From Conexibacter sp. CPCC 205762 (GTDB taxonomy: Bacteria; Actinomycetota; Thermoleophilia; Solirubrobacterales; Solirubrobacteraceae): a DNA stretch of 64,000 bases. Where the stretch lies: positions 1-64,000 of the forward strand of contig NZ_JAUTDN010000009.1 in NCBI RefSeq assembly GCF_030646155.1, read 5' to 3'. Both the position numbers and the translations under genes were made by a program. Shown here one piece after another: positions 7,119 to 36,146 of the stretch; positions within the stretch are counted from its first letter, which is position 1; each line of letters begins with the position of its first letter. The notes under the pieces are model-generated. The model worked only from the letters and a program-made list of their open reading frames with translations. It did not search any database and was not told the origin of the DNA.

Positions 7119-7540
7119 TGGGCCATCTCCTCGAACTCGACGCGGGTCGGCTGCACCGCCGCCCACCGCTGCGCGCGGGCGGCGCGGCAGCGCAGCAGCT
7201 CGGCGGCAAGGTCGGCCTCGACGCCGGCGAGCGCGCCGCGCCGCGCGGCGGCGTCGAGCAGCGCGCCGCAGAGCGCGCGGCGGCGCTCGTCGCCGACGAC
7301 GGTCGACCAGCCGGGGACGCCCTCCAGCTCGAGCTCGCAGCGGGTGACGAGCACCTCGCCGGCGTTGAAGGCCGCGCCGGCGACCGCGTCTCTCACGCGC
7401 AGCAGCGTCAGCGCCGGCTCGGCCGGTGCGGTCACGCTCACGTCGAGCTCGCCGACGGCGGCCTGCGTGGCCGCCTCCAGCCGCTCGATCCGCCCGTGGG
7501 CGATCAGCTCGTGCAGCTCCTCGATCGTCAATCCGCTCAC
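7115..7540 (-). CDS. phnG: C-P lyase core subunit PhnG
   Basis: This is a 141-residue protein (E. coli PhnG is about 150) with the family block RVRDAVAGAAFNAGEVLVTR and a following VVGDERRRALCGALLDAA. GTG at 7540 is the preferred start because it forms a GTGA overlap with the stop of the preceding PHP-family gene; the open frame upstream is Arg-rich shadow. PhnG supports the PhnI-dependent transfer of phosphonate to ribose. Confidence 0.92.
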   Translation of the reverse strand: MSGLTIEELHELIAHGRIERLEAATQAAVGELDVSVTAPAEPALTLLRVRDAVAGAAFNAGEVLVTRCELELEGVPGWSTVVGDERRRALCGALLDAAARRGALAGVEADLAAELLRCRAARAQRWAAVQPTRVEFEEMAQ

Positions 7541-18497: not shown

Positions 18498-19361
18498 CTA
18501 GCGTGACGCGGCGCGCGGCTCCGCCCCGTCGCCCGGAGTGCGGGGCCGCGCGCGAGGCGGGCAGGTCGCTCGTGCCGTCGCCGTGATCGTGGCGCCGTCG
18601 GAGAGCAGGACCTCGGCGCGGAACGGCAGCCCGCCCCTGGGGCAGCGGGCGGGGAGGATCGGCCCGTCCGGATGCCAGCGGCGAACGCGGCCGCGACGAT
18701 CGCGGCGCTGGTAGACGATCGCCTTGGAGCCGATCGTCGCGTCGACGTCCAGCAGCGCGACGTCGGAGGTGTCGTCGGGGAAGACGTCGGGGATCCGCGG
18801 GAGCGCGACGTCGATGCGGCCGCCGAACGGGCCGCGGTCGGCCGTCACCATCCCGGCGTAGACAAGGTTCGCGCCGAAGGGATTGATGCCCGTGACGAGG
18901 CCGACGACCTTGAGGCCGGTCGGGTCGAGCGGTCCGGCGAGGAGCGTGAACGTCGCTGTCTGGGTGATCGTTGGCGGGTGCAGCCGGATCTGTCCGCGAG
19001 CGCGACCGATCGCGATGACGGCGTTGGCGGGACAGCCCGCGCGTACCGGGAGCGGGTCGATCGCGACGGCGGCGAACGTCGCCGGCGACGGTCGGCAGGT
19101 GGCCAAGCCCAGGCCGCTGCCGATGATGTCGATCCCCGCGGCGTAGCGCAGCGTCAGGCGACGCGCGACCGCCCCTCGGCGGCGATCGAGATGCAGCTGC
19201 AGACGCAGCGCCGTCGGCTCGCCCAACCGCGCGTCGGCCGCGACGGACGCCTTCAGCCGCATCGCCGCCGGCGAAGCGGCGCTCACCGCGGGCACCGCGC
19301 CGGCGAGCACCAGGCCGGCGACGGCGGCGCCGAGCGCGCGGGGGCAGCGCGGGGCGGTCAA
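18498..19361 (-). CDS. Secreted protein of unknown function
   Basis: This 287-residue protein starts at TTG 19361, overlapping the previous stop as TTGA. The signal peptide spans about residues 1-28 (ALGAAVAGLVLAGAVPAVSA). The mature part is beta-rich with LTLRYAAGIDIIGSGLGLA, a C..C pair (ATCRPS, RAGCPAN) and a late DGATITATARATCPP. Proteins of this style (lipid-binding or Ig-like exported proteins) are frequent in Thermoleophilia, but I cannot name a family. It is co-transcribed with the small secreted protein before it. Confidence 0.65.
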   Translation of the reverse strand: MTAPRCPRALGAAVAGLVLAGAVPAVSAASPAAMRLKASVAADARLGEPTALRLQLHLDRRRGAVARRLTLRYAAGIDIIGSGLGLATCRPSPATFAAVAIDPLPVRAGCPANAVIAIGRARGQIRLHPPTITQTATFTLLAGPLDPTGLKVVGLVTGINPFGANLVYAGMVTADRGPFGGRIDVALPRIPDVFPDDTSDVALLDVDATIGSKAIVYQRRDRRGRVRRWHPDGPILPARCPRGGLPFRAEVLLSDGATITATARATCPPRARPRTPGDGAEPRAASR

Positions 19362-19777
19362 TAGTGGAGTCGGCCCTTGGCCGAGACGGTCGCGATCCAG
19401 GTCCGGCGGTTGAGCGTGCCCGACCAGGACGCAGAGCCACGCGCGCCGGCGAACTTGCCGGTGCCGCCGGAGACGGTCATGCGGCCCTTGAGCGTGACGG
19501 GCGAGCCGCTGACCCGGACCGAAATCGACCCGCCGCGCGGGTAGAAGGTGACCGAGCCGCGGATCGACGTCAGGCCGAACCGCAACGCTGCGGTCACGTT
19601 GCCGGGCAGCGTGCCCGTCGCGCTGCCTCCGAAGCGGTAGAGGCCGCCGGCCGTACTGATGCGGTGCAGTCTCGCGTTCTCGTTGAGCGCGATCGTCCGC
19701 GCTGGTGCCGTCGCGGGCGTCAGCAGCACGACCGCGACGATCGCGGCCGCAAGTGCAGTTCGGGTTTTCGCCAGCAC
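19358..19777 (-). CDS. Small secreted protein of unknown function
   Basis: This 139-residue exported protein starts at GTG 19777, with AGGACG just upstream. The signal peptide is LAAAIVAVVLLTPATAPA. The mature domain is a compact beta-rich sequence (FGGSATGTLPG, GSVTFYPRGGSISVRVSG, MTVSGGTGKFAGARG), a style seen in exported actinobacterial proteins that often occur in tandem with similar genes. It forms a TTGA-coupled pair with the next gene. Confidence 0.65.
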   Translation of the reverse strand: MLAKTRTALAAAIVAVVLLTPATAPARTIALNENARLHRISTAGGLYRFGGSATGTLPGNVTAALRFGLTSIRGSVTFYPRGGSISVRVSGSPVTLKGRMTVSGGTGKFAGARGSASWSGTLNRRTWIATVSAKGRLHY

Positions 19778-19895
19778 CGTCCTGTCCCCTTCCCCTCCGT
19801 CGAGCTGCGCCAGCTCTACGGCGCCGGCGCGTCAGCTCTGGACGGTAGCGCGGGTCGCGCGCGGCGCGCGGCAGCTCGATGCCGCCACGGTCGGG

Positions 19896-21980: not shown

Positions 21981-22577
21981 GTGGGGGCAAGCGAGCACAA
22001 CAGCACCGCCGAGCCGCGGATGACGCGAATGCGTGCGGCCGCGTTGGCGGCCGCGTACAGCATGCCGGACATCGGCTACGCGATCCGCGGGGACGTCGAC
22101 GAGCGCTTCGGCGGTTTCGGGATCAGAATCGGCTCTCGCGTCTACGCGGTTCTCGATGAGCTGGCGGCGCTGGGCCTGGTCGAGGTGTTCGACAGCTCCG
22201 AGCTGTGGCCCGCCCGGCCGAAGAACCGGCGAGGCAGCAGACGTGCGTTTCGGATCACGGCACGCGGCGTGCAGGCGCTGACCGAGTATCTGCGCACGCC
22301 GCTGGACGATTCCAGCGCCGTCAGCCTGACCGCCGACGTGCAGCTGCGCCTGACGGCCGTGCCACCCTCTGACACCAGCACGCTGCGCCACATACTGGAG
22401 ATGTGCGACGACGCGCTTCGTCGCCTCATCGCTGCGGAGGAACACGCCGCGCGCGCTGACGCCTCGCTGCCGGAACGGATGCACGCCGATCTCGTGGGCG
22501 ATACGTTGGATGCGCTGCGTGAGTGGCTGCGCGGCGCGCGCAAGCGGCTGGCAGAGATGGAGGACGGTCGAGGGTGA
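21981..22577 (+). CDS. PadR-like winged-helix regulator, cassette 1
   Basis: This 198-residue protein starts at GTG 21981 with GGGGA just upstream. Residues about 25-100 form a winged helix of PadR type: MPDIGYAIRGDVDERFGG, then RVYAVLDELAALGLVEV and an FRITARGVQALTEYL wing/helix. The C-terminal half is helical, as in PadR dimerisation domains. It ends with a GTGA overlap onto the first ATPase gene. PadR regulators often repress neighbouring exporter genes, so it probably controls this cassette. It is the counterpart of 30476-31027. Confidence 0.75.
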   Translation: MGASEHNSTAEPRMTRMRAAALAAAYSMPDIGYAIRGDVDERFGGFGIRIGSRVYAVLDELAALGLVEVFDSSELWPARPKNRRGSRRAFRITARGVQALTEYLRTPLDDSSAVSLTADVQLRLTAVPPSDTSTLRHILEMCDDALRRLIAAEEHAARADASLPERMHADLVGDTLDALREWLRGARKRLAEMEDGRG

Positions 22578-23275
22578 CGCCGTTGCTGGAGCTGGAGACG
22601 ATCGCGTGGCGCCAGGGGGCGCGCGAGGTTCTGCGCTCGGTCACCTTCAGCGTGCAGGCCGGCGAGCTGTTGGCGATCGGTGCCGGCGCCGACGCGGGCA
22701 AGTCGACGCTTGCGCAGATCATCATCGGCGCGCGCGAGCCCAGCGCCGGCACGGTCCGCTTCGACGGCGAGCCACCCCGCAGCCAGCTCGGCCAGCCCGG
22801 CGGGCTGCAGCTCGCGCGGATCACGTTCCTGCCGGCGCTTGGCCGCACCTCGCTTGAGCAGGTCGCCGCGCCGCGCAGCGGCGTTGTGAGCGCGCGCCGT
22901 GCTCGTGACGAGGCGGGGGAGGCGCTGCGGCTGACCAACGCCACCCGGCTGGCCGACCAACGGCCCGTCGACCTGCATCACGACGACCGCGTCCGCGTTG
23001 GGATCGCGCAGGCCGTGATGACCAGACCGCGCCTGCTCGTCCTCGATGAGCCGCTGCGCGGCGCCGAGCCGTCCAACCGCGACGAGCTGCTGATGCTCCT
23101 GCGCCTGCTGCGCGACAGACACGCCATGACGATCGTGATGACGACCAGCAGCATCAAGGGCCTGGGCGGTTGGCGGATCGAGGATCTCGCCGACGGCGTC
23201 CTTGAGGCGCGCGCCGCAGCGGCGCGCGCCGGGGGCGAGGTGGTCCACCTGCCGCGTCGAGGCACCGGCTCGTGA
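22574..23275 (+). CDS. ABC ATPase with degenerate catalytic motifs, cassette 1
   Basis: This is a 233-residue ABC-type ATPase-fold protein whose key motifs are eroded. Walker A reads AGADAGKST (36-45 region) instead of GPSGSGKST. The signature is LHHDD (134-138) instead of LSGGQ. The Q-loop Gln is missing (TFLPALG) and the H-loop His is replaced (MTTSS). Walker B LLVLDEP (154-160) is intact. It probably binds nucleotide but hydrolyses it poorly, pairing with the intact ATPase encoded next. GTG start overlaps the regulator stop; the end overlaps the next gene, also by GTGA. Confidence 0.82.
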   Translation: MTPLLELETIAWRQGAREVLRSVTFSVQAGELLAIGAGADAGKSTLAQIIIGAREPSAGTVRFDGEPPRSQLGQPGGLQLARITFLPALGRTSLEQVAAPRSGVVSARRARDEAGEALRLTNATRLADQRPVDLHHDDRVRVGIAQAVMTRPRLLVLDEPLRGAEPSNRDELLMLLRLLRDRHAMTIVMTTSSIKGLGGWRIEDLADGVLEARAAAARAGGEVVHLPRRGTGS

Positions 23276-23994
23276 CGCTGCTGCTGGAGGCCGTCGGACA
23301 CGACCATCGCGACGGCGACCAGCTCCTGCACGCCCTCAACGACATCAGCCTGACCGTCGACCGCGGCCAGCTGATCGCGCTCGTCGGTCCCAGCGGCGCC
23401 GGCAAGAGCACGCTGCTGTCGATCGCCGCCGGGATCCTCGTGCCGACTCGCGGGACGGTGACGTGGATCGAGCGAGACGGCGCGCCTATCGACATCAGCG
23501 CGCTGCAGGGGCGCGAGCAGCGGTGGTGGCGGCGGGAGCGGTTGGGGATGCTCGTGCAGGAGACGCGGCTCATCAGCGGCGTCGACGCGGTCGCCAACGT
23601 CGAGAGTCGCCTGCTGGGCAGCGGGATCCGCCCCTCAGCAGCCCGCCGGCGCGCTGAGCTGCTGCTCGGTGACGTCGGCCTGGGTAAACGGATGCGCGTC
23701 CACGTGCAGCGACTCTCCGGCGGCGAGCGCCGTCGCGTCGCGCTCGCGCAAGCGCTCGCTGCCGACCCCGTCCTGCTGCTCGCTGATGAGCCGACCGTCT
23801 CGCTCGACGGCGACGCCGGCCGGCTCGTGCTCGACGTGCTGCGCGCGCAGGCGCGCGACCACGGGCGGGCCGTGCTGATGGTCACCCACGATCCCGCTGC
23901 CGCCGCGGCCGCCGACCATACGCTGACCCTGCGAGATGGCCGCCTGCAGGCCGAGGCGCCGCCGCGCGCGGCGCAGGGATCGCTGCGGTCGTGA
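23272..23994 (+). CDS. MacB/LolD-type ABC ATPase, cassette 1
   Basis: This 240-residue ATPase has all motifs: Walker A GPSGAGKST, Q-loop VQE, signature LSGGERRR, Walker B LLLADEP, H-loop VTHD. Sequence style (LNDISLTVDRGQLIALVGPS) matches the LolD/MacB/FtsE group that powers FtsX-type permeases. It is coupled by GTGA overlaps to the degenerate ATPase before and the permease after, arguing for a complex of one permease with two unlike ATPases. Confidence 0.9.
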   Translation: MTLLLEAVGHDHRDGDQLLHALNDISLTVDRGQLIALVGPSGAGKSTLLSIAAGILVPTRGTVTWIERDGAPIDISALQGREQRWWRRERLGMLVQETRLISGVDAVANVESRLLGSGIRPSAARRRAELLLGDVGLGKRMRVHVQRLSGGERRRVALAQALAADPVLLLADEPTVSLDGDAGRLVLDVLRAQARDHGRAVLMVTHDPAAAAAADHTLTLRDGRLQAEAPPRAAQGSLRS

Positions 23995-26528
23995 TCCCGC
24001 TCTCCTCTCTGCTGCGCTTCGCCGTCATCGAGTGGTCCAGCGCGCGGTTGCGGACCGTCTTCACGCTCCTGGCCGGCGTGATGGGCGTCGGGATCATCTG
24101 CGCGATGCTGATCTCGATGACGTCGATCAGCGCCGGCGCCCGCGAGATCATGACCAGCATCGCCGGCACCGCGCAGCTGCAGCTCACGGCCCGCTCCGCC
24201 GACGGCGTCGACGAGCGTCTCGTCACGCGCATCCGGGCCGTGCCCGGCGTCGTGACGGCCGCGCCACTGCTGGAGCAGCGCGCGACGATCCGCTACGGCG
24301 ACCGCCGCGTCGGCGTGCAGCTCGTCGGCGTCACCGCCGCCGTCGGCGACCTCGACGGCATCACCTCCGGACCTTTGCTGACCGGCCTGCTCTCCGTCCC
24401 GCAGCTCTTCCTCCCCCGGGCCGTCGCCGACGCCGCCGGGGTGCCCGATCGCGGCGAGCCGGTCGTGCGCGTGGAGACGCGCGGGCTGACGCACGCCGTG
24501 GCCGTCAGCGACGTGCTCGACGAGCCCGTGCTCGGCCCGCTCGCCGCCGCGCACATCGCCGGCACGCCGCTGGCCCGCGCCCAGGCATGGGCCGGCCTCC
24601 CCCACCGCGTCAGCCGCATCCTCGTCCGCGCCGCGCCCGGCCAGGAAGCCGCCGTCAGGACGCACCTGGAGCGCCTCGCCGGCGACGCGCTGCAGGTCGG
24701 CACCGTCGATGACGAACTGGCGCTGCTGCGACGCGCCAGCGCACCCAACGACCAGGCGACCGGCCTCTTCGCCGCGATCGGCCTGCTCGTCGGCCTGCTG
24801 CTCTCCTGGATGGCGGCGGCCCTCACGCTGCCCGAACGCCGGCGCGCGATCATCGCCCACGCCGAGCACGGCCTGCCCCGCAGCAGGATCGCGCAGACGA
24901 TCCTGTTCCCCGCGCTCCTGCTCGGCCTCATCTCCGGCGCGCTCGGCGTCGGTGCCGGCGTGCTGCTCACGCACGCGGCCGCGCACGACGCCCCCGGCTA
25001 CCTCGCGTTCGCGTGGCCGCTGTCCTCGAGCCAGCCGCTGACCCCGGCGATCGTCGCCGCCTCGATCGCCGCCGGCGTCCTGATCAGCGTCCTCGCCGCG
25101 GCGCTGCCGCTGCTGGAGCTGCGCGGCGATCCCGTCCGACGTGCGCTTGAGGCCGACCACGACCCCGGGGAGACGATCGCGCCGACCCTCCAGAAGCGCT
25201 TCAGCGGCCTCAGCGTCGTCGCGATCGCCGCCGCGGCGATCATCGCGATCGCCGCGCCCTCGCTCACCGTCCTCGCCGTCGTGCTGCTGGCGCTCGGCAC
25301 CCTCGCGCTCATCCCCGCCCTCTTCTGCGCGATGCTGGCGATCGTCGCGGCGTGGCCGCGACGCGATCGCGAAGGCGTCTCGCTGGAGGCCGTCCGCGAG
25401 CTGCGCAGCACCGGCGTGCGGGCGGTCGCGCTGTGCGCGACCGCCGCCATCGCCGTCTTCGGCGCCGTCGCCGTCGACGGCGCGCGCATGAACCTGCTCA
25501 ACGGCCTCTACGAAGACTACGAGCAGTACACCGCCAGCGGCGACATCTGGATCACCGGCCACGGCGACGACCTCGCGCTCCAGCCGCTGCTCCTGCGCTC
25601 CGACCAGCTCGCAGACCTGCCCGGCGTCGCGACCGCGCGCGCCTACGGCGGCGGCTTCACCGACATCGGCGACCGCCGCGTCTGGATCCAAGCGCGCGAC
25701 GCAGCCGATAGCCCGATCATCCCGCCCAGCCAGCTGCAGCGCGGCGACCTCGCCCACGCCAGCGCGCAACTGCGCGCCGGCGGCGCGATCACGCTCTCCC
25801 GCCAGCTCGCCGACAGCGCTGGCGTCACCGTCGGCGACCCCTACCCGCTGCAGACACCGACCGGCCGCCGCGTCTACACCGTCGCCGCGCTCACCACCAA
25901 CCTCGGCTGGGGGCCCGGCGCGATCATCATGCCCCGCCGCGACTACGCCGAGGCGTGGCAGACGGCCTCGCCGACCGCGATCGAGATCCTCACCAGACCC
26001 GGCACCGCGCCCCAGCACGTCATCGCCGAGATCCGCGACACGCTGGGCCCCGAACTCGCAGCCGGCGTCCGCATCCAGACCGCCGCCCAGCGCAACGCGG
26101 CCGCCAACGACGTCGCTCGCGCCGGCCTGGCGCGGCTGCGTCAAATCGCGATCATCCTCGTCGCCGGCGCCGGCCTCGCGCTCGGCGCCGCGCTGGCGAC
26201 CACCATCTGGCAGCGCCGCCCCACCTGGGCCGCCCGCGCCTTCCACGCCTTCCCCCGCCGCCTCGCGGCCCGCCTCATCCTGCTCGAAGGCCTCCTGATC
26301 CTCGGCACCGGCTGCCTCGTCGGCGCGCTCGCCGGCCTCGCCGGACACTGGATGCTCGGCCGCTGGCTGGAAGCCACCACCGGCTACCCAGCCCCCTTCT
26401 CCATCGCGCCCGTGTCAGCCGCCGTCCCCTGCGCCATCCTGCTCCTGATCGCGCTGATCGTCACAGCGATCCCAGCCGATCGCGCCATCCGAGCCCCGCT
26501 GAAACTGGCGCTCGAACCCGACAACTGA
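23991..26528 (+). CDS. FtsX/MacB-type ABC permease, 845 residues, cassette 1
   Basis: This is a large membrane protein with a first membrane segment at about 22-44, a long extracytoplasmic domain (about 50-255), membrane segments near 257-279, 303-327, 352-376, 406-453 and 475-496, a second extracytoplasmic domain (about 500-720) and three final segments. This is the duplicated FtsX-domain layout of actinobacterial MacB-like exporters acting on lipids, peptides or envelope components. The C-terminal DVARAGLARLRQIAIILVAG block recurs in the cassette 2 protein, which has exactly the same length. GTG start overlaps the ATPase stop. Confidence 0.9.
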   Translation: MIPLSSLLRFAVIEWSSARLRTVFTLLAGVMGVGIICAMLISMTSISAGAREIMTSIAGTAQLQLTARSADGVDERLVTRIRAVPGVVTAAPLLEQRATIRYGDRRVGVQLVGVTAAVGDLDGITSGPLLTGLLSVPQLFLPRAVADAAGVPDRGEPVVRVETRGLTHAVAVSDVLDEPVLGPLAAAHIAGTPLARAQAWAGLPHRVSRILVRAAPGQEAAVRTHLERLAGDALQVGTVDDELALLRRASAPNDQATGLFAAIGLLVGLLLSWMAAALTLPERRRAIIAHAEHGLPRSRIAQTILFPALLLGLISGALGVGAGVLLTHAAAHDAPGYLAFAWPLSSSQPLTPAIVAASIAAGVLISVLAAALPLLELRGDPVRRALEADHDPGETIAPTLQKRFSGLSVVAIAAAAIIAIAAPSLTVLAVVLLALGTLALIPALFCAMLAIVAAWPRRDREGVSLEAVRELRSTGVRAVALCATAAIAVFGAVAVDGARMNLLNGLYEDYEQYTASGDIWITGHGDDLALQPLLLRSDQLADLPGVATARAYGGGFTDIGDRRVWIQARDAADSPIIPPSQLQRGDLAHASAQLRAGGAITLSRQLADSAGVTVGDPYPLQTPTGRRVYTVAALTTNLGWGPGAIIMPRRDYAEAWQTASPTAIEILTRPGTAPQHVIAEIRDTLGPELAAGVRIQTAAQRNAAANDVARAGLARLRQIAIILVAGAGLALGAALATTIWQRRPTWAARAFHAFPRRLAARLILLEGLLILGTGCLVGALAGLAGHWMLGRWLEATTGYPAPFSIAPVSAAVPCAILLLIALIVTAIPADRAIRAPLKLALEPDN

Positions 26529-26533
26529 ACACA

Positions 26534-26561
26534 CGCGCGCGGCACTGGGGCGCCGCGCGCG
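26534..26561. promoter_or_regulatory. 10-bp hairpin between permease and terpene synthase genes, cassette 1
   Basis: CGCGCGCGGC at 26534-26543 pairs perfectly with 26552-26561, with an 8-base loop. It begins 6 bases after the permease stop and 25 bases before the synthase ATG. It may reduce read-through into the synthase gene or protect the mRNA. No T-run follows. Confidence 0.45.
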
Positions 26562-26585
26562 GCAAGGCCGGGGGGATCCTTGCCC

Positions 26586-27683
26586 ATGACCCAGCACCAC
26601 CGCCGAGCCATCACCGCAACCGCGGCGATGCTCACCGCGCTCGCCCGCTACCAGCTCGCGATCGTCCCGGTCGCCGACGCCGAGATAGCCCGCTGGCGCA
26701 ACCGCGCCCGCGCCATCCCCGACCCGCACCTGCGGCGCCTCACGCTCGCGACCCTCACCGAGGAGGACAGCAACGCCTCGGCCGCCGCTGTCTTCGCGCT
26801 CCTGGCGCCCCGCAGCGCTCGCCGCGAGGCTGTCGAGCTGCTGACGGCCTGGCAGCTCATGTACGACCTGCTGGACACCCTCACCGAGCAACCCTCGCCT
26901 GACCCGCTCGCCGCCGGCCTGCGCGCCCACCGCGCCCTGGTCGCCTCGATCGACCCCGCGATGCCGCTGGACGAGATCCCCGCCGAAGACGGCGGCTACC
27001 TGCGCGAGCTGGCCGCGACCTGCAGGCGGCGGCTCTGGCGCCTGCCCGCAGCGCCCGCGATCGCGTCCGCCGCCGCCGCCGAAGCCGACCGCTGCGCGCA
27101 TGCGCAGAGCCACACGCACGCAGCCGTGCTCCACGGCGACCAGACCGCGCTGCGCGCCTGGGCCGAGCGCGACACCCGCTGGCACAGCAGCGCGTGGTGG
27201 GAGACAGCAGCCGCAGGGATCTCCAGCCTCGCCGTCCTCGCGCTGCTCGCGCTCGCCGCGAGCCCGAGGACGACCCCGACCGAGGCGGCCACGGTCGCCA
27301 ACGTCTACGGCGCCGTCTGCGCGCTCAGCACGCTGCTCGACAGCCTCGTCGACGTCACCGAGGACGAGACCTCCGGCAACACCTCCTACTTCGCCCACTA
27401 CCCGACCGCATCCGACGCAGCCGCCGGCATGGGCCAGATGGCCCGCGCGAGCATGGCAGCCGCCGACCTCCTCCCCGCCGCAGCGGTGCACAGGACGATC
27501 GTCAGCGGCCTCGTCGCCTTCTACCTCGCCAAGCTCCCACGGTCCCCGCGGGCCGACCAAGCGCAGGCCGCTGACAGCGTCCGCGCGCAACTCGGCCCGA
27601 GCGTCGATCCGGCGCTCGTTCTGCTTTCGCTGAGACGTCACGGCCCGCGGCCGCTGTCGCAGCGGCGTGCTCGATTGCTCTGA
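26586..27683 (+). CDS. DUF2600 (YtpB-type) terpene synthase, cassette 1
   Basis: This 365-residue all-helical protein belongs to DUF2600, the family of Bacillus YtpB (tetraprenyl-beta-curcumene synthase), a class I-type prenyl diphosphate cyclase without the usual DDxxD. Visible family motifs are YDLLD at 93-97 (DYLD in YtpB) and LLDSLVDVTEDETSG at 250-264, both acidic metal-binding candidates, then SYFAHYP. ATG 26586 is chosen, with GGGGGG 10 bases upstream; TTG 26580 is the alternative. It probably acts at the membrane face on a long isoprenoid diphosphate. The link to the exporter genes is by position. Confidence 0.8.
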   Translation: MTQHHRRAITATAAMLTALARYQLAIVPVADAEIARWRNRARAIPDPHLRRLTLATLTEEDSNASAAAVFALLAPRSARREAVELLTAWQLMYDLLDTLTEQPSPDPLAAGLRAHRALVASIDPAMPLDEIPAEDGGYLRELAATCRRRLWRLPAAPAIASAAAAEADRCAHAQSHTHAAVLHGDQTALRAWAERDTRWHSSAWWETAAAGISSLAVLALLALAASPRTTPTEAATVANVYGAVCALSTLLDSLVDVTEDETSGNTSYFAHYPTASDAAAGMGQMARASMAAADLLPAAAVHRTIVSGLVAFYLAKLPRSPRADQAQAADSVRAQLGPSVDPALVLLSLRRHGPRPLSQRRARLL

Positions 27684-27992
27684 TCGCTCGCTTTTGGATC
27701 GGGTCGCTTGGGCACAGACGTATCGAGCCGACTATCCGATAGGCCGGGCGTCCCGCCCGACCTGATCGCTGGGCTTGTGACCAGGTCGCCGGGTGACGCG
27801 CGGGCCGACGGGGCGCAGACGCGCGCATCTCACGTGAGCCGAGGCTGCTCGCGCCAGGTCGCGCACTACCACCGCCCGCGTCGGGGTCTGTCCCGCGACT
27901 TGAATAGATGCGCGTGAGGGGTTCGTCCCCAGCCGCGGAGGACGTGGCTGCGTTCAGGGCTCCCAGCTTCCCAGTTCGCCGGGTCTGTCAGG
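27684..27992. other. Convergent intergenic region after cassette 1
   Basis: These 309 bases lie between the terpene synthase and the decayed partner gene on the other strand. An imperfect hairpin is visible around 27745-27764 (GGCCGGGCG, TCC, CGCCCGACC with one mismatch) and may terminate both strands. I see no gene. Confidence 0.35.
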
Positions 27993-28555
27993 TCAGAGCG
28001 GCGGCAAGCAGGTGCCCAAACCCGGACGCTGTCCGGGCTCGAACGAGCGGACGGTGACGCGGTCACCCCAGCTCGGTTGGTTGGAGGCGAGGTAGTCGGT
28101 GACCCACTTTGCCGCGGCGGTGCTCACGTAGAGCGCGACGTCGAGGCAGCGTCTTGCTGAGGCGACGCGCAGTGGAGCGGTGTCGGTGTATATGTCCGGG
28201 TTGTAGAGCCCGAGCGACTGGATGATCGTCGTGTTCAGGCGAGCGAGCGCGTTGTTGGTGTAGGCGGGGTTGACGAGCCGAACTTGGACATAGCGCTGGT
28301 AGCGCTGGCTGCGGACGATCTCGTCGCTTTGCGGAGGCTTGCTCTGGTCGTCACGAGCACCTGCGTGCGACCATCCGTCGTTTGGACAAAGCAGCCGAAA
28401 CGCACTCCGAGGGTCGTCTCAAACGCAGGCTGGAGCGAGTCGACAATGTCGTCGCTGATGTTGTCTCTCGTGGCCGCCAGTGTCGCACTGCTGCCGACAC
28501 CGAGCGTGACCGTGATCAGCGCTGTCGCGATCCCCAATTTCGTGTTCATGGACAT
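27993..28555 (-). pseudogene. Secreted protease partner, copy C, frameshifted
   Basis: The ATG at 28555 opens a signal peptide (KLGIATALITVTLGVGSSATLA) and a mature start with FGCFVQTTDGRTQVLVTTRA and then SLRKA, matching copies A and B. At about 28330 one base is missing; the frame then should read DEIVRSQRYQRYVQVRLV, the second-cysteine segment RCLDVALYVS, and near the end WGDRVTVRSFEPGQ, to the TGA at 27993. Restoring one base gives a full-length protein of the family. Either a mutation or a sequencing error. It sits downstream of a decayed protease gene. Confidence 0.65.
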
Positions 28556-28684
28556 GCCCCTGCGAACTGGATGGTGAATGTTTTGTGAACGAGATGAGCG
28601 GACGTCGCCGTTGGCTCTCGGCGACGTCCCGGTCGGTCCGCTCCAGCAGCGCGGCCCGACCGTGTGTACGGCGTGGGCCGGAGA

Positions 28685-29190
28685 CTAGTACGTCACGACC
28701 TGGAAGGCGGTCCGTGCGTCATCGACCTGGCCGTAGGCCGAGTCGCAGCCTGAGCCGGAGCTGAGTATTCCCTGCGGCTGGTGCCGACGATGAACGGTCC
28801 TCCGCTGTCGCCGTCTACGGAGCAGGTCCCCGGAACGTTGAAGAGGTTCCGAACGGAGCTCGTCGAGGTGTTGAGGGCCGTGCGATCGACCAGAATCTGT
28901 CTGCTGTCGAGGCCGACGTATTGGACGGTCCCGCAGGCGTAGTTGCTGCTGCGCCCGCTGCGGCACCCGAATCTTCCCGGCAATGCGAGGTCGGTTGCGG
29001 TCGCGATGTCCATCGTGACGAGGCCGATGTCGTGCTGGGTGCCCGGCTGACCAGCGCCGTCACGCTCAGCACCAACGCGGTTCAGACCCCAATGGGAACA
29101 GACAGACAGCCCACATGGACGGAGTGCCATGGACGCCACGCCTCCGGCAGCGGCAAACGACGCACGGCGCGTCGAGAGCAACGACCTCAA
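28685..29190 (-). pseudogene. Trypsin-like secreted protease, copy C, truncated and frameshifted
   Basis: The minus strand encodes the C-terminal half of an S1-type protease: TQHDIGLVTMD with the catalytic Asp, CSVDGDSGGPFIVG with the catalytic Ser, then, after a one-base shift near 28775, QGILSSGSGCDSAYGQ and the end TAFQVVTY at 28685. The His-containing TAGHC region and the pro-region are absent; the preceding sequence after MRSLLSTRRASFAAAGG does not resemble the intact copies. The gene is therefore dead or at best inactive. Confidence 0.65.
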
Positions 29191-29505
29191 AATTCAGCAC
29201 TAAAAAATAGGCTGGTGGTCGGGGGGAGGGCGCCGTACGGTGCCTCTTGTCGATGACCGCAGAGACGTTCCTCACCACCAACCGCCGTGACGTTCCTCCC
29301 CCTCCAGGCCACGGCAACGGGAGCAGAGACAGGCTCCGCGTGTCGCAGGCGCAGGCTTCCCCCTTGAGCCAGCGCCTGCCGCGACACGACGAGCCGCGCC
29401 ACAGCCGCGACCTGGGACACGAGTGGTCCCGGCGCCGTCGCGTTCCCCTTGACGCGGCGGTCGCCGGGGCCGCTCAACTCTTGCCAGCAGCGACCCGAAG
29501 TCCGC
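29191..29505. other. Divergent intergenic region
   Basis: These 315 bases lie between the decayed protease (minus) and a plus-strand gene pair. There is a lower-GC patch at about 29188-29215 (AAAATTCAGCACTAAAAAAT). No gene or clear hairpin found; it may include remnants of the missing protease 5' part, but I could not read any. Confidence 0.35.
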
Positions 29506-30141
29506 ATGGCGCTGGTCTCTGAGCAGCTCCCGGGCAGCGACCAACTGCGATGGGTCGAGACAGCCGAGTTGCTTCGCACAGGCGAGGCGCTCCTGCTTCA
29601 CATGCTCAGCCTGCTACGCGGCGTCGATCCTGAGATCCCGGCGACCACGTCGTTCACGCTCTCGCTGCTGGACGCGACCGACGCGCTCACTCTGCGCGAC
29701 GAGTTCTTGGACATCGCCGACCAGCTTCGGCTGACGGCGGAGCGACTTCCTGCCGACGAGGTCCAGTTCCGCTGGCGCGACCTCCAGCGGCAAGCTGCGC
29801 GGGCGCTCGCCGCCGGCACGGTCGACGCCCGTCGAGCGCTGGTGCTGGCGCGGTGCATGGCGGTCCCGACGGGCTTTGCAGCACTCGCCGAGATGCTGCG
29901 CTGCACTGACGCGCACGAGTCGTGGGACCGCATGGATGTCGGGCAACTGCTCGCGTCGTTTCGCGACGTTGACGGCCCACTTGCCGCGTCGCTGACAGCG
30001 ATGGCGCGGCTCTCGCCCGAGGCGCCGATCGCGACCCTGTCGCGCCCGCAGATCGTGAGACTCGCAGCCGTGCTCGAAACGTACGCCGCGAAGGCGCCAC
30101 GGCATCCGCACGACCGAGGTTCAGACGATGGCGAGCGGTGA
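29506..30141 (+). CDS. Unrecognised helical protein upstream of cassette 2
   Basis: This 211-residue soluble, mostly helical protein starts at ATG 29506 (MALVSEQLPGSD). Segments such as LLRTGEALLLHMLSLLRGVD and the AARALAAGTVDARRALVLAR region suggest an all-helical scaffold; no catalytic motif is evident. It overlaps the following winged-helix gene by 14 bases and is read in the same direction as cassette 2. Function unknown. Confidence 0.6.
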   Translation: MALVSEQLPGSDQLRWVETAELLRTGEALLLHMLSLLRGVDPEIPATTSFTLSLLDATDALTLRDEFLDIADQLRLTAERLPADEVQFRWRDLQRQAARALAAGTVDARRALVLARCMAVPTGFAALAEMLRCTDAHESWDRMDVGQLLASFRDVDGPLAASLTAMARLSPEAPIATLSRPQIVRLAAVLETYAAKAPRHPHDRGSDDGER

Positions 30142-30400
30142 TCTTCAGACGGTCGACCGCGAGGAGCTGCGGGTCCAGAGCGACCTGCTCGTGTTCCTGC
30201 TGCTGCGCGGCCGTACCGGACCCACGTCGTTCCAGGAGGTCGAGCGCGAGATGGCGCACGAGTTCCACGGCCCGTACGAGGTCGACGACGTTCGCCGGGC
30301 GCTCCGCGATCTCACGCACGCCGGCCTGCTGCATCATCTGCCGGGCAACTTCGTCGTGCCTACCGTCGCCGCCTTCCACATGTCGATGCTGTCTGTCTGA
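30128..30400 (+). CDS. Small winged-helix-like protein upstream of cassette 2
   Basis: This 90-residue protein has the shape of a single winged helix: a first helix DLLVFLLLRGRTGPTSF, a middle EVDDVRRALRDLTHAGLLHH and a wing LPGNFVVPT. It probably binds DNA or partners with the 211-residue protein it overlaps. It ends 75 bases before the PadR-type gene of cassette 2 and may contribute to its control; that is inference. Confidence 0.55.
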   Translation: MASGDLQTVDREELRVQSDLLVFLLLRGRTGPTSFQEVEREMAHEFHGPYEVDDVRRALRDLTHAGLLHHLPGNFVVPTVAAFHMSMLSV

Positions 30401-30475
30401 CGCCTGGCTAACAGGCGCGTTGCGCTGTCTGCTGGTGTAGCGTTGGCTCGACGGCGATCGGGGAGCGGTTAGGGG

Positions 30476-31027
30476 ATGTCGGTCAGGCAGGCGGTGCTGG
30501 GGCTGGTGATCGAGCGGCCGGGCTACGGCTACGAGCTGGACGCGCGCCTCACCGAGCGGATAGGGAGTTGGCGCCACTCCGAGACGGCGGTCTACCCAGC
30601 GCTGCTGAAGCTGGCGAGAGACGGGATGGTGCGCGAGACGCTACGGCGTCCGGCCCACGACAGAGTTGTCTGGTACGAAGCCACCGACGCGGGGCGCGAC
30701 GACTTCAAGAGATGGTTGAGGAAGCCGCCGTCGCTGCTGCCGCTGCGCGATGACCTCCATCTCAAGATCTCGCTTGCAGATGAAGAGGATCTCGCGTTCT
30801 TGATCGAGCAGACGCGAGCACAGGAGCAGCTCTGCCTCGACCGGCTCGACAGACTCAGCGACGCTGGCGCCGAGCCGGAGCGGTTGATGGATCCCAACGT
30901 CGAGTGGCGCGCGATCGGCCATCTGTGGATGCGACGGACCGAGGTCGCGCACGTGACAGCCGCGATCGAGTCGTTGCAGGAGGCGCGTTCGCTGATGAGA
31001 GCCCACCTGCGCCGGAGAGCGCGTTGA
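30476..31027 (+). CDS. PadR-family regulator, cassette 2
   Basis: This 183-residue protein has a classic PadR winged helix: AVLGLVIERPGYGYELDARL, then TAVYPALLKLARDGMV and VVWYEATDAGRDDFKRWL, and a helical PadR C-terminal domain. ATG 30476 has GGGGAG 9 bases upstream. It ends with a TTGA overlap on the first ATPase gene, exactly the position of the cassette 1 regulator, so it is the likely repressor of cassette 2. Confidence 0.85.
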   Translation: MSVRQAVLGLVIERPGYGYELDARLTERIGSWRHSETAVYPALLKLARDGMVRETLRRPAHDRVVWYEATDAGRDDFKRWLRKPPSLLPLRDDLHLKISLADEEDLAFLIEQTRAQEQLCLDRLDRLSDAGAEPERLMDPNVEWRAIGHLWMRRTEVAHVTAAIESLQEARSLMRAHLRRRAR

Positions 31028-31764
31028 CGAAGCCGCCGCTCCTGTCGGTCGAAAGCGTCGGGCGCACCTTCTGGCGCGGGATCGTGGAGGTGCCGGTCCT
31101 CGACGGTGTCAGCTTCGAGGTCAACGAGGGCGAGTTTGCCGCCGTCGCCGGCCGGCAGGCGTCGGGCAAGACGACGCTCGTCCGCATCGCCGCCGGCCTT
31201 GACGCTCCCGACACCGGAGTTGTCCGCTTCCAAGGTCGCGATCTCCACGCGGAGATGCGCAAGTCCCGGTTTCGTGGGCTGCCGCCGTCGATCGGCTGGA
31301 TGTCGCGGTCTGGGCCGCAGATACCGTCGCAGCGCATGCGCGAGTACGTCGCTGTGCCGGTTCTCGAGGACGTGTCGCACCGCGCCGCGAGCCAGCGCGC
31401 GATGCGGGCGCTTGACAGCTTCGGCGCGACCCAACTCGCAGACGCCGTGTGGAGCGAGATGTCCGACGCGCAGCGCACGCAAGCCGCGTTGGCGCGCGCG
31501 ATCGTCCGCGAGCCCGCGCTGCTCGTGGCTGACGATCCGACGGCCGGCCTCGACGTGCACGATCGAGAGATCCTGCTCGGCCTGTTGCGCCGGGTGGCCG
31601 AGACGACCGGCATGGCGACGTTGATCGCCGTGCCCGAGATCGCCGACATGCTGCGCTCGCACAAGGTGATGACGCTCAGCGACGGAGAGCTGATGCAAGC
31701 GAGCCGGCACAAGCCGGGCCAGGTCGTGGAGTTCCCGCCGAGACGCCGTCCGGGGTCGGCCTGA
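31024..31764 (+). CDS. ABC ATPase with degenerate catalytic motifs, cassette 2
   Basis: This is a 246-residue ABC fold protein starting at TTG 31024. Walker A GRQASGKTT (43-51) is near normal, but the signature is MSDAQ (146-150), the Q-loop Gln is replaced (GWMSRSG), the Walker B catalytic Glu is Asp (LLVADDPT, 166-173) and the H-loop His is replaced (AVPE). The set of losses parallels that in cassette 1, so degeneration is a conserved trait rather than decay. It probably forms an asymmetric dimer with the next gene product. Confidence 0.82.
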   Translation: MTKPPLLSVESVGRTFWRGIVEVPVLDGVSFEVNEGEFAAVAGRQASGKTTLVRIAAGLDAPDTGVVRFQGRDLHAEMRKSRFRGLPPSIGWMSRSGPQIPSQRMREYVAVPVLEDVSHRAASQRAMRALDSFGATQLADAVWSEMSDAQRTQAALARAIVREPALLVADDPTAGLDVHDREILLGLLRRVAETTGMATLIAVPEIADMLRSHKVMTLSDGELMQASRHKPGQVVEFPPRRRPGSA

Positions 31765-32483
31765 TGCTCGAAGTCCGCGACCTCGTCAAGCACTACCCGA
31801 CGCCGGGCGGCGAGACGGTCCGCGCGCTCGATGGCGTCTCGCTGAACGTCGCCGCTGGCGAGTTCGTCGCGCTGTACGGCCCCAGCGGCTCAGGCAAGAC
31901 GACGCTGTTGACGATCGTCGCCGCCGCGCTGGTGCCAGACGCGGGCGACGTGCGCGTAGACAGCCGCTCGGTGATCGGGCTGCCCGAGCGAGAGGTGTCC
32001 CTGTATCGGCAGCGCGAGCTGGGCCTGATGCTGCCGACCCACAACGTTATCGCGGGCCTGACGGCGATCGACAACGCGTCGCTCAAGCTGCTGGCCGGCA
32101 GCGTCAGCAAACGCGCCGAAGCCCGCAGACGCGTGGAACCGCTGTTGAGACGGTTGGGTCTCGCGGCGCGTGCACAGCACCGCGCGACAGACCTCTCCCT
32201 CGGCGAGCGTCAGCGGCTGATGCTCGCAGCGGCGCTGTCGACCGATCCGCCGCTGCTCGTCGCCGACGAGCCGACCGGCAGCCTCGACACAGCCCGCAGC
32301 CGCGACGTGCTCGCGTTCCTGCGTGAGCGCAGCCACGAGCGCGGGACGGCCGTCCTCGTTGCCACCCACGATCCGCAGGCGACGGCGTTCGCCGACACCG
32401 TCTACACGCTCCGCGACGGCCTGGTCGGGGCGTTCGACCGCGAGCGCGACGCCGATCTCACCACCACGCTGCACCGCTCGTGA
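31764..32483 (+). CDS. MacB/LolD-type ABC ATPase, cassette 2
   Basis: This 239-residue ATPase has intact motifs: Walker A GPSGSGKTT, signature LSLGERQR, Walker B LLVADEPTGSLD, H-loop VATHD. LolD/MacB style. ATG 31764 shares its A with the previous stop (TGATG), and the end overlaps the permease start by GTGA. It energises the 845-residue permease. Confidence 0.9.
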   Translation: MLEVRDLVKHYPTPGGETVRALDGVSLNVAAGEFVALYGPSGSGKTTLLTIVAAALVPDAGDVRVDSRSVIGLPEREVSLYRQRELGLMLPTHNVIAGLTAIDNASLKLLAGSVSKRAEARRRVEPLLRRLGLAARAQHRATDLSLGERQRLMLAAALSTDPPLLVADEPTGSLDTARSRDVLAFLRERSHERGTAVLVATHDPQATAFADTVYTLRDGLVGAFDRERDADLTTTLHRS

Positions 32484-35017
32484 GCCTGCGCAACCTGTGG
32501 TGGTTCTATCGCGAGCGGCTCCGCGCACGCCGCGTGCAGGAGCTGTTCGCGCTCGTCGGCATCGCGGTCGGGGTTGCGCTGCTGTTCGCAGTCCAGACCG
32601 CCAACCAGAGTCTCAGCGCGTCCGCCTCGCAGTTGACCGAGGGGCTGACCGGCAGCGCCCAGCTCCAGCTCAAGGCACGCGACCCGCGCGGCTTTCCCGG
32701 GACGCTGCTGAGAGAGGTCGAGGCGATCGACGGCGTCGACGCCGCCGCTCCGGTCCTTGAGTTCCCCGCCAACGCGGTCAACGGCCAGCGGGAGCAGTCG
32801 GTGACGGTGCTGGCTGCCGACCCGCGCCTGGCCCGGATGGGCGGGCGGCTCGTGCGCGACTACACCGACGACCGCTTCTCGGATCTCGAAGCCGTGGTGC
32901 TCCCATCCGGCGTCGCGCAGTCGCTCGACGTCGGCTTCGGCGGCTGGGTCACGCTCCAAGCAGCCGGCCGCGCCGAACGCGTGCCCGTCGCGACGGTCGC
33001 CGGTCAGGAGCTTCTCGGCGCCGTCGCCGAGAGCCCGCTGCTGATCACGTCGCTGCCGTACGCGCAGAAGATCACCGGCCTGAGAGGGCGTGTCACCCGC
33101 ATCTACGTCACCGCGGATCCGTCCCGCATCAGTGAGGTCACGGGAGCGCTTGAGAAGATCGCGGGCGATCAGATCGATGTGCGCGGCGCCGACTTCGACG
33201 CGGCCGTCTTCGCCAATCTGGCGATGCCCAACGATAACTCGACCTCGCTGTTCGCCGGGATCAGCGCCCTCGTCGGCTTCCTCTTCGCCTTCAACGCCAT
33301 GCTCGTCATGGCGCGCGAGCGACGCAGAACAATCGCCGAGATGCGCCTCGCCGGCTATCGCTCGCGCACGGTCGTGCAGGTGATGCTGTTCGACGCCGTG
33401 GTCCTTGGGACCGCTGCCTCCGTGCTCGGCGTCGTGCTCGGCGCCGCGCTCTCTCGCTTCGCCTTCCAGCCCGACCCCGGATACCTCGCCATCGCATTCC
33501 CCGTCGGCGCCGGCCGCGTGATCGAGCCGCTGACCGTCGCACTCGCCTTCGGCTGCGGCCTCCTCGCCGCCGTCGCCGCCGCGATGGTGCCGTTGATCGG
33601 CGCCTATCGCTCCGTCGGCCCGATGGACGCGATCCGCGACGACGCACTCGATCGCGGCGGTAGAAACGCTCAGCGGTCTTTCTGGGCGCCTGCCGCCGGC
33701 GCCGCTGTCTGTCTCGCTGCGACGACGGCGGTCCTCGTACTGGCGCCGGAGGCCGCGCTGGCAGGCATGGCGACGTTGATCGCAGCAATGCTCCTGATCC
33801 TCCGGCCGGCGCTCGGCATCGTCGTCGCGAGCCTGAATCAGATACGCAGCCGTGTGCGCAGCGTCGTGCCGACGATCGCGGTCGGCGAGCTGATGTCCGC
33901 CAGCACCCGCTCGCTCGCGATCGTCGCCATCGCCGCCATCGCCGTCTTCGGCACGACCGCGATCGAGGGCGCCCGAGGCGACCTGCAACGCGGCCTCGAT
34001 CCCAACGCGCGCGAACTGGCCGACACCACCGACCTGTGGGTCAGCGCGCGAGGTGCCTCAAACCTGCTGGCCACGACGCCGTTCGACGCCGAAGGCGTCG
34101 CCCGTCGCGTCGAGTCGGCGCCTGGCGTCAGCTCGGTGTCGCTCTATCGCGGGTCGTTCCTCGACACAGGCGATCGGCGCATGCTGGTGATCGCGCCGCC
34201 GCGAGACAGCAGAACGCCGATCCCGCCGACGCAGCTCCTCCACGGCGACCTCGCACAAGCGACGGCGCGCGTGCGCGCCGGAGGATGGGCGGTCGCGTCG
34301 GAGGCGATCGTCAGAGAACAGGGCTGGAAGCTCGGCGAGCCGTTCCGACTCGAATCACCGCACCCGTTGACGCTCCGGCTCGCCGGCATCTCGACCAACT
34401 TCGGGTGGTCGCCGGGCGCGCTCGTCATCAACGCCGACGACTACCGCGCCGGCTGGGGTAGCGACGCCGTCAGCGCCGTGCAGGTCGCGCTCGCGCCGAG
34501 CGCTGCTGCTGCGGTCGCTCAACGAGCGGTCGTGATGGCGCTCGGCGACAGCGCGCCGTTCCAAGTCCAGACCGCCGCCCAGCGCGAGCAATCATTCCGC
34601 ACCACGACACGCGCCGGCCTGGCGCGGCTCCAGCAGATCGCCGCGCTGTTGATCGGCGCCGCCGCGCTCGCCGTCGCGGCAGCGACCGCCGCGATGATCT
34701 GGCAGCGACGACGGCAGCTCGCCGACCACAAGCTCAGCAACGGCATCAGCGCCAAGAGCCTGTGGAAGGCACTGCTGCTGGAGTGCACCGTCCTGCTCGG
34801 CGTCGGCGCCACCGTCGGCGCCGCCTTCGGCCTCTACGGACAACAGCTCCTCGACCGCGCGCTCGGCACGGTCACCGGCTTCCCAGTCGAGCACACGATC
34901 GGCATCCCCGCCGCGCTGGCGAGCCTCGTTCTCGTGACCGTCATCACCCTGCTCATCGCCGCCGTGCCCGGCTGGCTCGCCGCGCGCGTGCCGGCAGCCG
35001 CAGCATTCGACCAATGA
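32480..35017 (+). CDS. FtsX/MacB-type ABC permease, 845 residues, cassette 2
   Basis: This permease has the same length and layout as in cassette 1: a first membrane segment at about 24-42 (LFALVGIAVGVALLFAVQTA), a first extracytoplasmic domain to about 255, a middle bundle of membrane segments, a second extracytoplasmic domain (about 505-715) and three terminal segments. The RTTTRAGLARLQQIAALLIG block corresponds to that of cassette 1. Homology over the full length is evident although the sequences have diverged, implying an old duplication. Confidence 0.9.
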   Translation: MSLRNLWWFYRERLRARRVQELFALVGIAVGVALLFAVQTANQSLSASASQLTEGLTGSAQLQLKARDPRGFPGTLLREVEAIDGVDAAAPVLEFPANAVNGQREQSVTVLAADPRLARMGGRLVRDYTDDRFSDLEAVVLPSGVAQSLDVGFGGWVTLQAAGRAERVPVATVAGQELLGAVAESPLLITSLPYAQKITGLRGRVTRIYVTADPSRISEVTGALEKIAGDQIDVRGADFDAAVFANLAMPNDNSTSLFAGISALVGFLFAFNAMLVMARERRRTIAEMRLAGYRSRTVVQVMLFDAVVLGTAASVLGVVLGAALSRFAFQPDPGYLAIAFPVGAGRVIEPLTVALAFGCGLLAAVAAAMVPLIGAYRSVGPMDAIRDDALDRGGRNAQRSFWAPAAGAAVCLAATTAVLVLAPEAALAGMATLIAAMLLILRPALGIVVASLNQIRSRVRSVVPTIAVGELMSASTRSLAIVAIAAIAVFGTTAIEGARGDLQRGLDPNARELADTTDLWVSARGASNLLATTPFDAEGVARRVESAPGVSSVSLYRGSFLDTGDRRMLVIAPPRDSRTPIPPTQLLHGDLAQATARVRAGGWAVASEAIVREQGWKLGEPFRLESPHPLTLRLAGISTNFGWSPGALVINADDYRAGWGSDAVSAVQVALAPSAAAAVAQRAVVMALGDSAPFQVQTAAQREQSFRTTTRAGLARLQQIAALLIGAAALAVAAATAAMIWQRRRQLADHKLSNGISAKSLWKALLLECTVLLGVGATVGAAFGLYGQQLLDRALGTVTGFPVEHTIGIPAALASLVLVTVITLLIAAVPGWLAARVPAAAAFDQ

Positions 35018-35057
35018 GCTGAGAAGCGCGCCCAATTCGGCGGGTCATGCTTGCCGG

Positions 35058-36146
35058 ATGAGCCCAACGACACTGACGCCCGCCCAGCTCGGCGCGTTCT
35101 GCGCCGTCGCCTGGCGGGAGCTGACATGGACGCTGCCGCGCGTGCGCAGAGAGGTCGCCCGCTGGCGCACCCGTGCGCTCGCGATCCCCGATCCGTCACT
35201 GCGCTTCGACGCAGTGGAGAGCCTGCGCAGCGAGCGACTCAATCTCGAAGGCGCCGCGCTGTTCACCTGTCTGCCGCGCTGGCGCGACCTCCGGCTCCTG
35301 CGCCTGACCGTCGCCTACCAAGTCGCGCTCGACTACCTCGACCGCATCAGCGAACGCCACACGCCGGACCCGATCGCCAACGGCCGGCAGCTCAACCGGG
35401 CGCTCCTGCACGCGCTCGATCCCGATGCCGCGCTGACGGACTACTACCGCCACCATCCATGGCACGACGACGGCGGCTACCTCGCCGCGATCGTCGCGTA
35501 CTGCCAACACGAATGTCAGCGATTGCCGACCTACCCGAGGATCAAACCGCACATCCTCGCCGCCGCGCGCCGCATAGACGTACAGATCTTCAACCACGAC
35601 CCGAACCCGGCCCGCCGAGACGCGGCGCTCGCCGCCTTTGCCGCGCAGACCTACCCCGATCTCCACGAGCCGGCTTGGTTCGAGCTGACCGCCGCCGCCA
35701 GCTCGACCGTCGGCGTGCACGCCCTGCTCGCGCTCGCCGCTGATCCCGAGACGACCGAAGCGGACGTGATTGCGACCGACCGCGCCTACGCCTTTTCCAT
35801 CTGCGCGGCCAGCACGCTCCTCGACAGCCTGGTCGATGAGCGCGAAGACGCTACAACCGGCGACCACAGCTACATCGGCCACTACCCGAGCGCCGCGGAG
35901 GCGATCGATCGGATCTGCGCGATCGTCACGCAGTCTCGCGACGAAGCGGCAGCGCTCAGACAGGGCCGCCGCCACGCCTTGATCGCAGGCGGCATCGTCG
36001 CGATGTACCTCTCCAAGGACGACGCCTATCGACCCGATATACGGGATCGCGTTGGGCGCATTCTACGAGCGGCTGGACCGCTCCCAACGCTTCAGCGACC
36101 GATCATGCGAACGCTGCGTTTAGCGCGGGGGCTGAGCAACGCGTAA
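35058..36146 (+). CDS. DUF2600 (YtpB-type) terpene synthase, cassette 2
   Basis: This is a 362-residue helical protein, paralogue of 26586-27683. Motifs: RWRTRALAIPDPSLR at 36-50, DYLD at 92-95, DDGGYL near 137-142, and LLDSLVDEREDATTGDHSY at 254-272 followed by IGHYP. The DYLD and second acidic motifs are the presumed diphosphate/metal sites of DUF2600 cyclases. ATG 35058 lies 40 bases after the permease stop. Product unknown; long-chain prenyl diphosphates are the expected substrates from the family. Confidence 0.82.
   Translation: MSPTTLTPAQLGAFCAVAWRELTWTLPRVRREVARWRTRALAIPDPSLRFDAVESLRSERLNLEGAALFTCLPRWRDLRLLRLTVAYQVALDYLDRISERHTPDPIANGRQLNRALLHALDPDAALTDYYRHHPWHDDGGYLAAIVAYCQHECQRLPTYPRIKPHILAAARRIDVQIFNHDPNPARRDAALAAFAAQTYPDLHEPAWFELTAAASSTVGVHALLALAADPETTEADVIATDRAYAFSICAASTLLDSLVDEREDATTGDHSYIGHYPSAAEAIDRICAIVTQSRDEAAALRQGRRHALIAGGIVAMYLSKDDAYRPDIRDRVGRILRAAGPLPTLQRPIMRTLRLARGLSNA

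What the first reader, a model, noticed from the sequence alone, without database searches (positions are those of the whole stretch)
21981..36146. Duplicated five-gene cassette: PadR regulator, crippled ABC ATPase, intact ABC ATPase, FtsX-type permease, DUF2600 terpene synthase
Seen: two units (21981-27683 and 30476-36146) have the same five gene types in the same order, with GTGA/TTGA/TGATG overlaps through the first four genes, and permeases of identical length (845). Known: MacB/FtsX-type systems export peptides, lipids and envelope components; DUF2600/YtpB makes cyclic terpenes from long prenyl diphosphates. Inference: the cassette makes a terpenoid at the membrane and exports it, or flips an isoprenoid-linked envelope compound, under PadR control. 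I know of no described system with this composition.
Basis: partly seen in the sequence, partly recalled or inferred. Interest (0 to 1): 0.85.

Follow-up and report, generated by a model that had tools for sequence, protein, structure and literature searches.

The report
Terpene-making enzyme with its own transporter
Soil bacteria of the genus Conexibacter and its relatives carry up to ten versions of a gene cassette that pairs an enzyme making a long-chain terpene with a membrane pump whose closest solved relative pulls greasy molecules out of the membrane, which points to an undescribed route for putting terpenes on or outside the cell.

Summary
Two five-gene cassettes (PadR, degenerate ABC ATPase, intact ABC ATPase, 845-aa FtsX-type permease, DUF2600 terpene synthase) lie at about 21981-27683 and 30476-36146 in a Conexibacter genome. 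They are not a recent duplication: they are ancient paralogues (32-34% identical) from different subclades. All 31 DUF2600 genes in the seven genomes of the genus sit beside such a cassette, and the permease clade spans six genera of the order. Among 48 loci chosen by permease alone, 30 have the synthase within 3 kb and five others have a different isoprenoid enzyme (polyprenyl synthase, squalene/phytoene synthase, cis-prenyltransferase). All these permeases form one fully supported clade; distant relatives lack the link. The synthase models as a class IB terpene synthase with its aspartates kept. The permease models like E. coli YbbP, whose complex extracts hydrophobic compounds from the membrane. 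The 'crippled' ATPase is a conserved subunit: 70 of 71 lack the H-loop histidine, while all 74 partners are intact. Best reading: a terpene synthesis-and-extraction machine with an unusual heterodimeric ATPase. No description was found in the papers searched. Product, transport direction and PadR control are inferred.

The parts
21981..22577 (+). Cassette A gene 1: PadR-like regulator (alternative start near 22023)
   Evidence: Pfam PadR 25.8 bits, just under cut-off; genus PadR HMM 136 bits
22574..23275 (+). Cassette A gene 2: degenerate ABC ATPase (NBDd): Walker A AGADAGKS, signature LHHDD, no H-loop His
   Evidence: Pfam ABC_tran 1.5e-15; motifs
23272..23994 (+). Cassette A gene 3: intact LolD/FtsE-like ABC ATPase (NBDc)
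   Evidence: Pfam ABC_tran 1.3e-30; motifs intact
23991..26528 (+). Cassette A gene 4: 845-aa FtsX-type permease, 10 predicted TM helices, two extracytoplasmic domains
   Evidence: Pfam MacB_PCD and FtsX; hydropathy
26586..27683 (+). Cassette A gene 5: DUF2600 class IB terpene synthase, aspartate motifs kept
   Evidence: Pfam PF10776 8.4e-54; motif alignment
30476..31027 (+). Cassette B gene 1: PadR regulator
   Evidence: Pfam PadR 1.9e-14
31024..31764 (+). Cassette B gene 2: degenerate ABC ATPase: signature MSDAQ, Walker B DD, no H-loop His
   Evidence: Pfam ABC_tran 1.6e-21; motifs
31764..32483 (+). Cassette B gene 3: intact ABC ATPase
   Evidence: Pfam ABC_tran 2e-26; motifs
32480..35017 (+). 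Cassette B gene 4: 845-aa FtsX-type permease; model closest to E. coli YbbP
   Evidence: Pfam FtsX 6.6e-20; AlphaFold pLDDT 84; Foldseek 9GE6 E 1.7e-21
35058..36146 (+). Cassette B gene 5: DUF2600 class IB terpene synthase
   Evidence: Pfam 4.4e-94; 5YO8 phmmer 8.6e-42; AlphaFold pLDDT 93, 6LOO/5YO8 TM 0.87-0.91
19361..19798 (-). Possible accessory S1: small protein with a hydrophobic N-terminus (likely secreted), recurrent near cassettes
   Evidence: HMM built here from window and cassette-flank copies finds it near about 20 other cassette loci, in operon with TPS-NBDc-PERM in L135, L138, L147
18498..19361 (-). Possible accessory S2: partner of S1, likely secreted
   Evidence: same neighbourhoods; distribution over 32 genomes

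Best explanation
Each cassette is a dedicated terpene synthesis-and-extraction unit. The DUF2600 enzyme, a class IB terpene synthase related to YtpB, cyclises a long polyprenyl diphosphate in the cytoplasm into a membrane-soluble terpene. A YbbAP-like type VII ABC complex, one 10-helix permease with two extracytoplasmic domains driven by an unequal pair of ATPases (one catalytic, one degenerate and probably regulatory), pulls the terpene out of the membrane and presents it on the outside, in some loci perhaps to two secreted proteins (S1, S2). PadR probably controls the unit. Shown by sequence: composition, conservation, co-inheritance, retained synthase aspartates, ATPase asymmetry, folds. 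Inferred: substrate, product, heterodimer, outward delivery, regulation.
For: 31 of 31 DUF2600 genes in the genus are cassette-linked. Of 48 permease-selected loci, 30 have the synthase within 3 kb, 2 more within 6.5 kb, and 5 more have another isoprenoid enzyme: polyprenyl_synt at three loci, SQS_PSY, cis-prenyltransferase. All isoprenoid-linked permeases form one clade (support 1.0), with the other-enzyme loci of G127 and G130 branching deepest and unlinked relatives outside. Permease and synthase distances correlate at r 0.76 (permutation maximum 0.15), as strongly as permease with intact ATPase at 0.68. The synthase is usually directly downstream, median gap about 60 bp. Synthase aspartates conserved and fold class IB. 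[quoted passage not shown] ATPase asymmetry conserved.
Against: No product, transport or expression data. Co-inheritance as one operon would also give correlated trees. Eleven permeases inside the synthase clade have no isoprenoid gene found nearby; some of these are at contig ends. L149, L156 and L158 have a degenerate ATPase but no intact one nearby. A hydrocarbon terpene could stay in the membrane without a transporter. The permease match to YbbP is at fold level (15% identity, TM 0.60), and YbbP's partner TesA is not seen.
Confidence: 0.6

Rival explanations
1. Envelope-stress module: the transporter gives resistance to an antibiotic or peptide at the membrane, and the terpene synthase independently stiffens the membrane or drains polyprenyl diphosphates; they share regulation, not a substrate.
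For: PadR regulators and type VII transporters often serve antibiotic response (general knowledge); in B. subtilis YtpB activity and heptaprenyl diphosphate levels affect bacitracin sensitivity (PMC7038271); multiple diverged cassettes per genome suit a resistance repertoire.
Against: The synthase tracks the permease as closely as the ATPase does, and when it is absent it is sometimes replaced by other isoprenoid enzymes, which points to the isoprenoid itself.
Confidence: 0.2
2. The transporter acts on isoprenoid carrier lipids or polyprenyl diphosphates, such as undecaprenyl or menaquinone precursors, and the adjacent enzymes make or consume that carrier rather than an exported terpene.
For: Neighbouring enzymes include cis- and trans-prenyl diphosphate synthases; a UPP-flipping role was once proposed for BceAB (PMC7038271).
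Against: A cyclising terpene synthase is by far the commonest partner (60 of 78 clade members; this set is partly synthase-selected), and up to ten diverged cassettes per genome do not suit an essential carrier cycle.
Confidence: 0.12
3. The degenerate ATPase does not join the same complex; it is an independent regulator or a subunit of another transporter, and the working transporter is an ordinary homodimer of the intact ATPase.
For: Five loci have the synthase, intact ATPase and permease without the degenerate one; YbbAP uses two identical ATPases (PMC12646458).
Against: It is immediately next to the intact ATPase, usually overlapping, in most cassettes and its tree tracks the permease (r 0.79).
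Confidence: 0.25

Closest known systems
E. coli YbbAP-TesA type VII ABC system
   Same: Permease of similar length, 10 TM helices, two extracytoplasmic domains, top PDB match; a single permease with two ATPases; hydrophobic membrane substrate proposed (PMC12646458)
   Different: Two unequal ATPases here instead of a YbbA pair; a cytoplasmic terpene synthase instead of the periplasmic hydrolase TesA; PadR; monoderm actinobacteria
YtpB / BalTS tetraprenyl-beta-curcumene synthase (class IB, sesquarterpene)
   Same: Family PF10776, fold (TM 0.87-0.91), metal-binding aspartates
   Different: Motifs shifted from DYLDNLxD and DY(F,L,W)IDxxED to DYLDxxxE and DSxxDxxxD; genetically bound to an ABC transporter; up to ten diverged copies per genome
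LolCDE / MacB / BceAB type VII transporters
   Same: FtsX-fold permease, LolD/FtsE-like ATPase, mechanotransmission class
   Different: No LolA, MacA or BceS partner seen; probable heterodimeric ATPase; isoprenoid enzyme partner

Membership tests
DUF2600 / YtpB class IB terpene synthases | PF10776 match and class IB fold | tested here: met
   A 183 bits, B 315 bits, cut-off 25; B model TM 0.87-0.91 to 6LOO/5YO8
[quoted passage not shown]
   Core aspartates D92, D95, D260, D264 kept in nearly all copies, but last D of motif 1 is E and Y of motif 2 is S: a variant form
DUF2600 / YtpB class IB terpene synthases | Cyclises heptaprenyl diphosphate to a C35 terpene | not testable with these tools
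   Needs enzyme assay
Type VII (FtsX-fold) ABC transporters | FtsX-type permease with extracytoplasmic domains and LolD/FtsE-like ATPase | tested here: met
   Pfam FtsX and MacB_PCD, NCBIfam LolD/FtsE/DevA best hits below cut-off, Foldseek YbbAP, LolCDE, MacB
YbbAP-TesA | 10-TM permease with two extracytoplasmic domains | tested here: met
   Model and hydropathy
YbbAP-TesA | Two identical ATPase subunits | tested here: not met
   Two different ATPase genes in most cassettes, one lacking the H-loop His in 70 of 71 copies; actual subunit make-up not testable here
YbbAP-TesA | TesA hydrolase partner in the operon | tested here: inconclusive
   No TesA search was run; no hydrolase gene is part of the conserved cassette, whose partner is an isoprenoid enzyme

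The most novel reading that the evidence does not exclude
A previously undescribed class of type VII ABC system with a conserved heterodimeric ATPase that extracts terpenes from the membrane, in which the partner isoprenoid enzyme has been swapped during evolution and which has expanded to as many as ten terpene-specific copies per genome.
Probability: 0.5. Interest if true: 0.85.

Novelty: new variant of a known kind. Interest (0 to 1): 0.72.

Why it matters
How bacteria move long-chain terpenes out of the membrane is largely unknown; in B. subtilis the YtpB product is proposed to lie at the spore surface, and the passages read name no transporter (PMC11708026). This gives a concrete candidate present in cultured type strains, extends type VII ABC transporters to isoprenoids and to an unequal ATPase pair, and offers dozens of diverged terpene synthases likely to make different products.

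Tried and rejected
Recent tandem duplication: rejected by identities and tree. Pseudogene decay of the first ATPase: rejected, since it is retained in 71 copies with a consistent pattern of loss. Phylum-wide system: DUF2600 only in the own genome among 396 sampled, and distant permease relatives lack isoprenoid genes beside them. SqhC-like cyclase partner: only weak partial PF13243 matches in the own genome, none linked. Substrate-supplying polyprenyl synthase: three in the own genome, none beside the four cassettes. PadR operator: no shared palindrome. S1 as a dirigent-type barrel: only 0.003-level Pfam hits and no convincing PDB relative, left as a lead. A conserved VVxFP tail of the degenerate ATPase, seen in a consensus, was present in only 8 of 34. 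An alignment-based scan with A1 failed for lack of conserved stretches.

Full report
Observation. The two cassettes are present as described, with the stated overlaps and two 845-aa permeases. Pfam supports each gene type; the PadR of cassette A is just under its cut-off. The window is G000:C108:1-64000 of a 6.1 Mb, 116-contig draft. The genus is Conexibacter: one member (G111) contains a contig of C. arvalis DSM 23288, and G153 is a single 6,359,369-base contig, the length I recall for C. woesei (memory).

Not a recent duplication. A and B share only 34% (synthase), 32% (permease) and 33% (degenerate ATPase) identity. In a permease tree of 101 sequences they fall in different subclades, each with members from other genomes.

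Genomic association. PF10776 is rare in the class (4 of 149 genomes) and found only in the own genome among 396 of the phylum, but present in 7 of 7 genomes of the genus with 1-10 copies, 31 in all. All 31 lie beside the PadR/NBDd/NBDc/permease set. Two DUF2600 genes of the class outside the genus, with higher YtpB-like scores, do not. Starting instead from the permease, strong matches occur in 32 of 232 genomes of the order, six genera. Of 48 permease-selected loci, 30 have the synthase within 3 kb and 2 more within 6.5 kb. The synthase lies directly downstream on the same strand in 48 of 63 linked cases, with a median gap near 60 bp; other cases are divergent, convergent, or upstream in a TPS-NBDc-PERM arrangement without NBDd or PadR.

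Enzyme replacement. In two genomes of another family the same permease stands beside other isoprenoid genes: polyprenyl synthetases with DDxxD motifs at three loci, two of them with an FAD-oxidoreductase/polyprenyl-synthase fusion, and a squalene/phytoene synthase. In a further genome it is followed by a cis-prenyltransferase (4e-61). All isoprenoid-linked permeases form one clade with support 1.0; the other-enzyme loci of G127 and G130 are its deepest branches, and the distant relatives outside it are plain ATPase-permease pairs. An ancestral isoprenoid link with partner exchange is the simplest reading.

Synthase. The aspartates of both metal motifs are kept in nearly all copies, with shifts at two positions from the published YtpB motifs (PMC7839719). 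The B model (pLDDT 93) matches class IB synthase structures 6LOO and 5YO8 at TM 0.87-0.91.

Transporter. The B permease model (pLDDT 84) has 10 TM helices and two extracytoplasmic domains; its best PDB match over the full length is E. coli YbbAP (E 1.7e-21, TM 0.60), then LolCDE. [quoted passage not shown] Here two different ATPases are encoded. All 74 NBDc have intact Walker A, Walker B and H-loop; of 71 NBDd only one has the H-loop His, 24 have Walker-A Arg, and signatures vary. The B. subtilis type VII transporters shown in the passages read are listed with two identical ATPases (PMC11466899), so a heterodimeric member would be unusual. Three loci have NBDd and no NBDc nearby, which is unexplained.

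Co-inheritance. Over 53 full cassettes, distance correlations are 0.76 for permease-synthase, 0.79 for permease-NBDd and 0.68 for permease-NBDc, against permutation maxima below 0.2. This shows the synthase has travelled with the transporter through the duplications; it does not by itself prove co-adaptation.

Secreted accessories. A pair of probably secreted proteins, S1 and S2, recurs near about 20 other cassette loci and lies at 18498-19798 in the window; in L135, L138 and L147 the order is S1-S2-TPS-NBDc-PERM on one strand. S2 also occurs away from known cassettes. They are candidates to accept the product, no more.

Limits. Gene calls come from a home-made codon model and HMMs trained on the cassettes themselves; Pfam is the independent check. 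Genus loci were chosen by the synthase, so the unbiased rate is the permease-selected one. Several loci end at contig edges. The literature search covered open-access papers only: DUF2600 appears by name in one, and no paper found describes this composition.

Verdict. A real, conserved and apparently undescribed system: new in combination, built from known families. Function as a terpene synthesis-and-extraction unit is the best-supported inference at about 0.6.

Noticed in passing
window 18498-19798 (-) and L133, L135, L136, L138, L147, L163, L164, L166: S1/S2 pair of probably secreted proteins recurring near terpene cassettes; S1 has a hydrophobic N-terminus and only weak dirigent-like Pfam hits.
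   Followed up: partly
L149, L156, L158: Cassettes with a degenerate ATPase lacking the H-loop His but no intact ATPase nearby; how they would hydrolyse ATP is unexplained.
   Followed up: no
L093:11975-14098 (-) and L095:12731-14935 (+): FAD-dependent, geranylgeranyl-reductase-like oxidoreductase fused to a degenerate polyprenyl-synthase domain without DDxxD, next to the permease.
   Followed up: partly
L098 (Conexibacter arvalis): Complete PadR/NBDd/NBDc/permease set without a terpene gene nearby, followed by genes for another ABC transporter.
   Followed up: no
window 36667-38441 (+) and 14527-15699 (-): Secreted proteins after cassette B that resemble a trypsin-like protease encoded at 14527-15699.
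   Followed up: no
window 3034-7549 (-): Genes that look like a phosphonate C-P lyase cluster (phn), recognised by eye only.
   Followed up: no
window 52296-63803 (-): Two DNA methyltransferases, a weak ParB-like protein, a helicase and a VWA-domain protein, which suggests a mobile element.
   Followed up: partly
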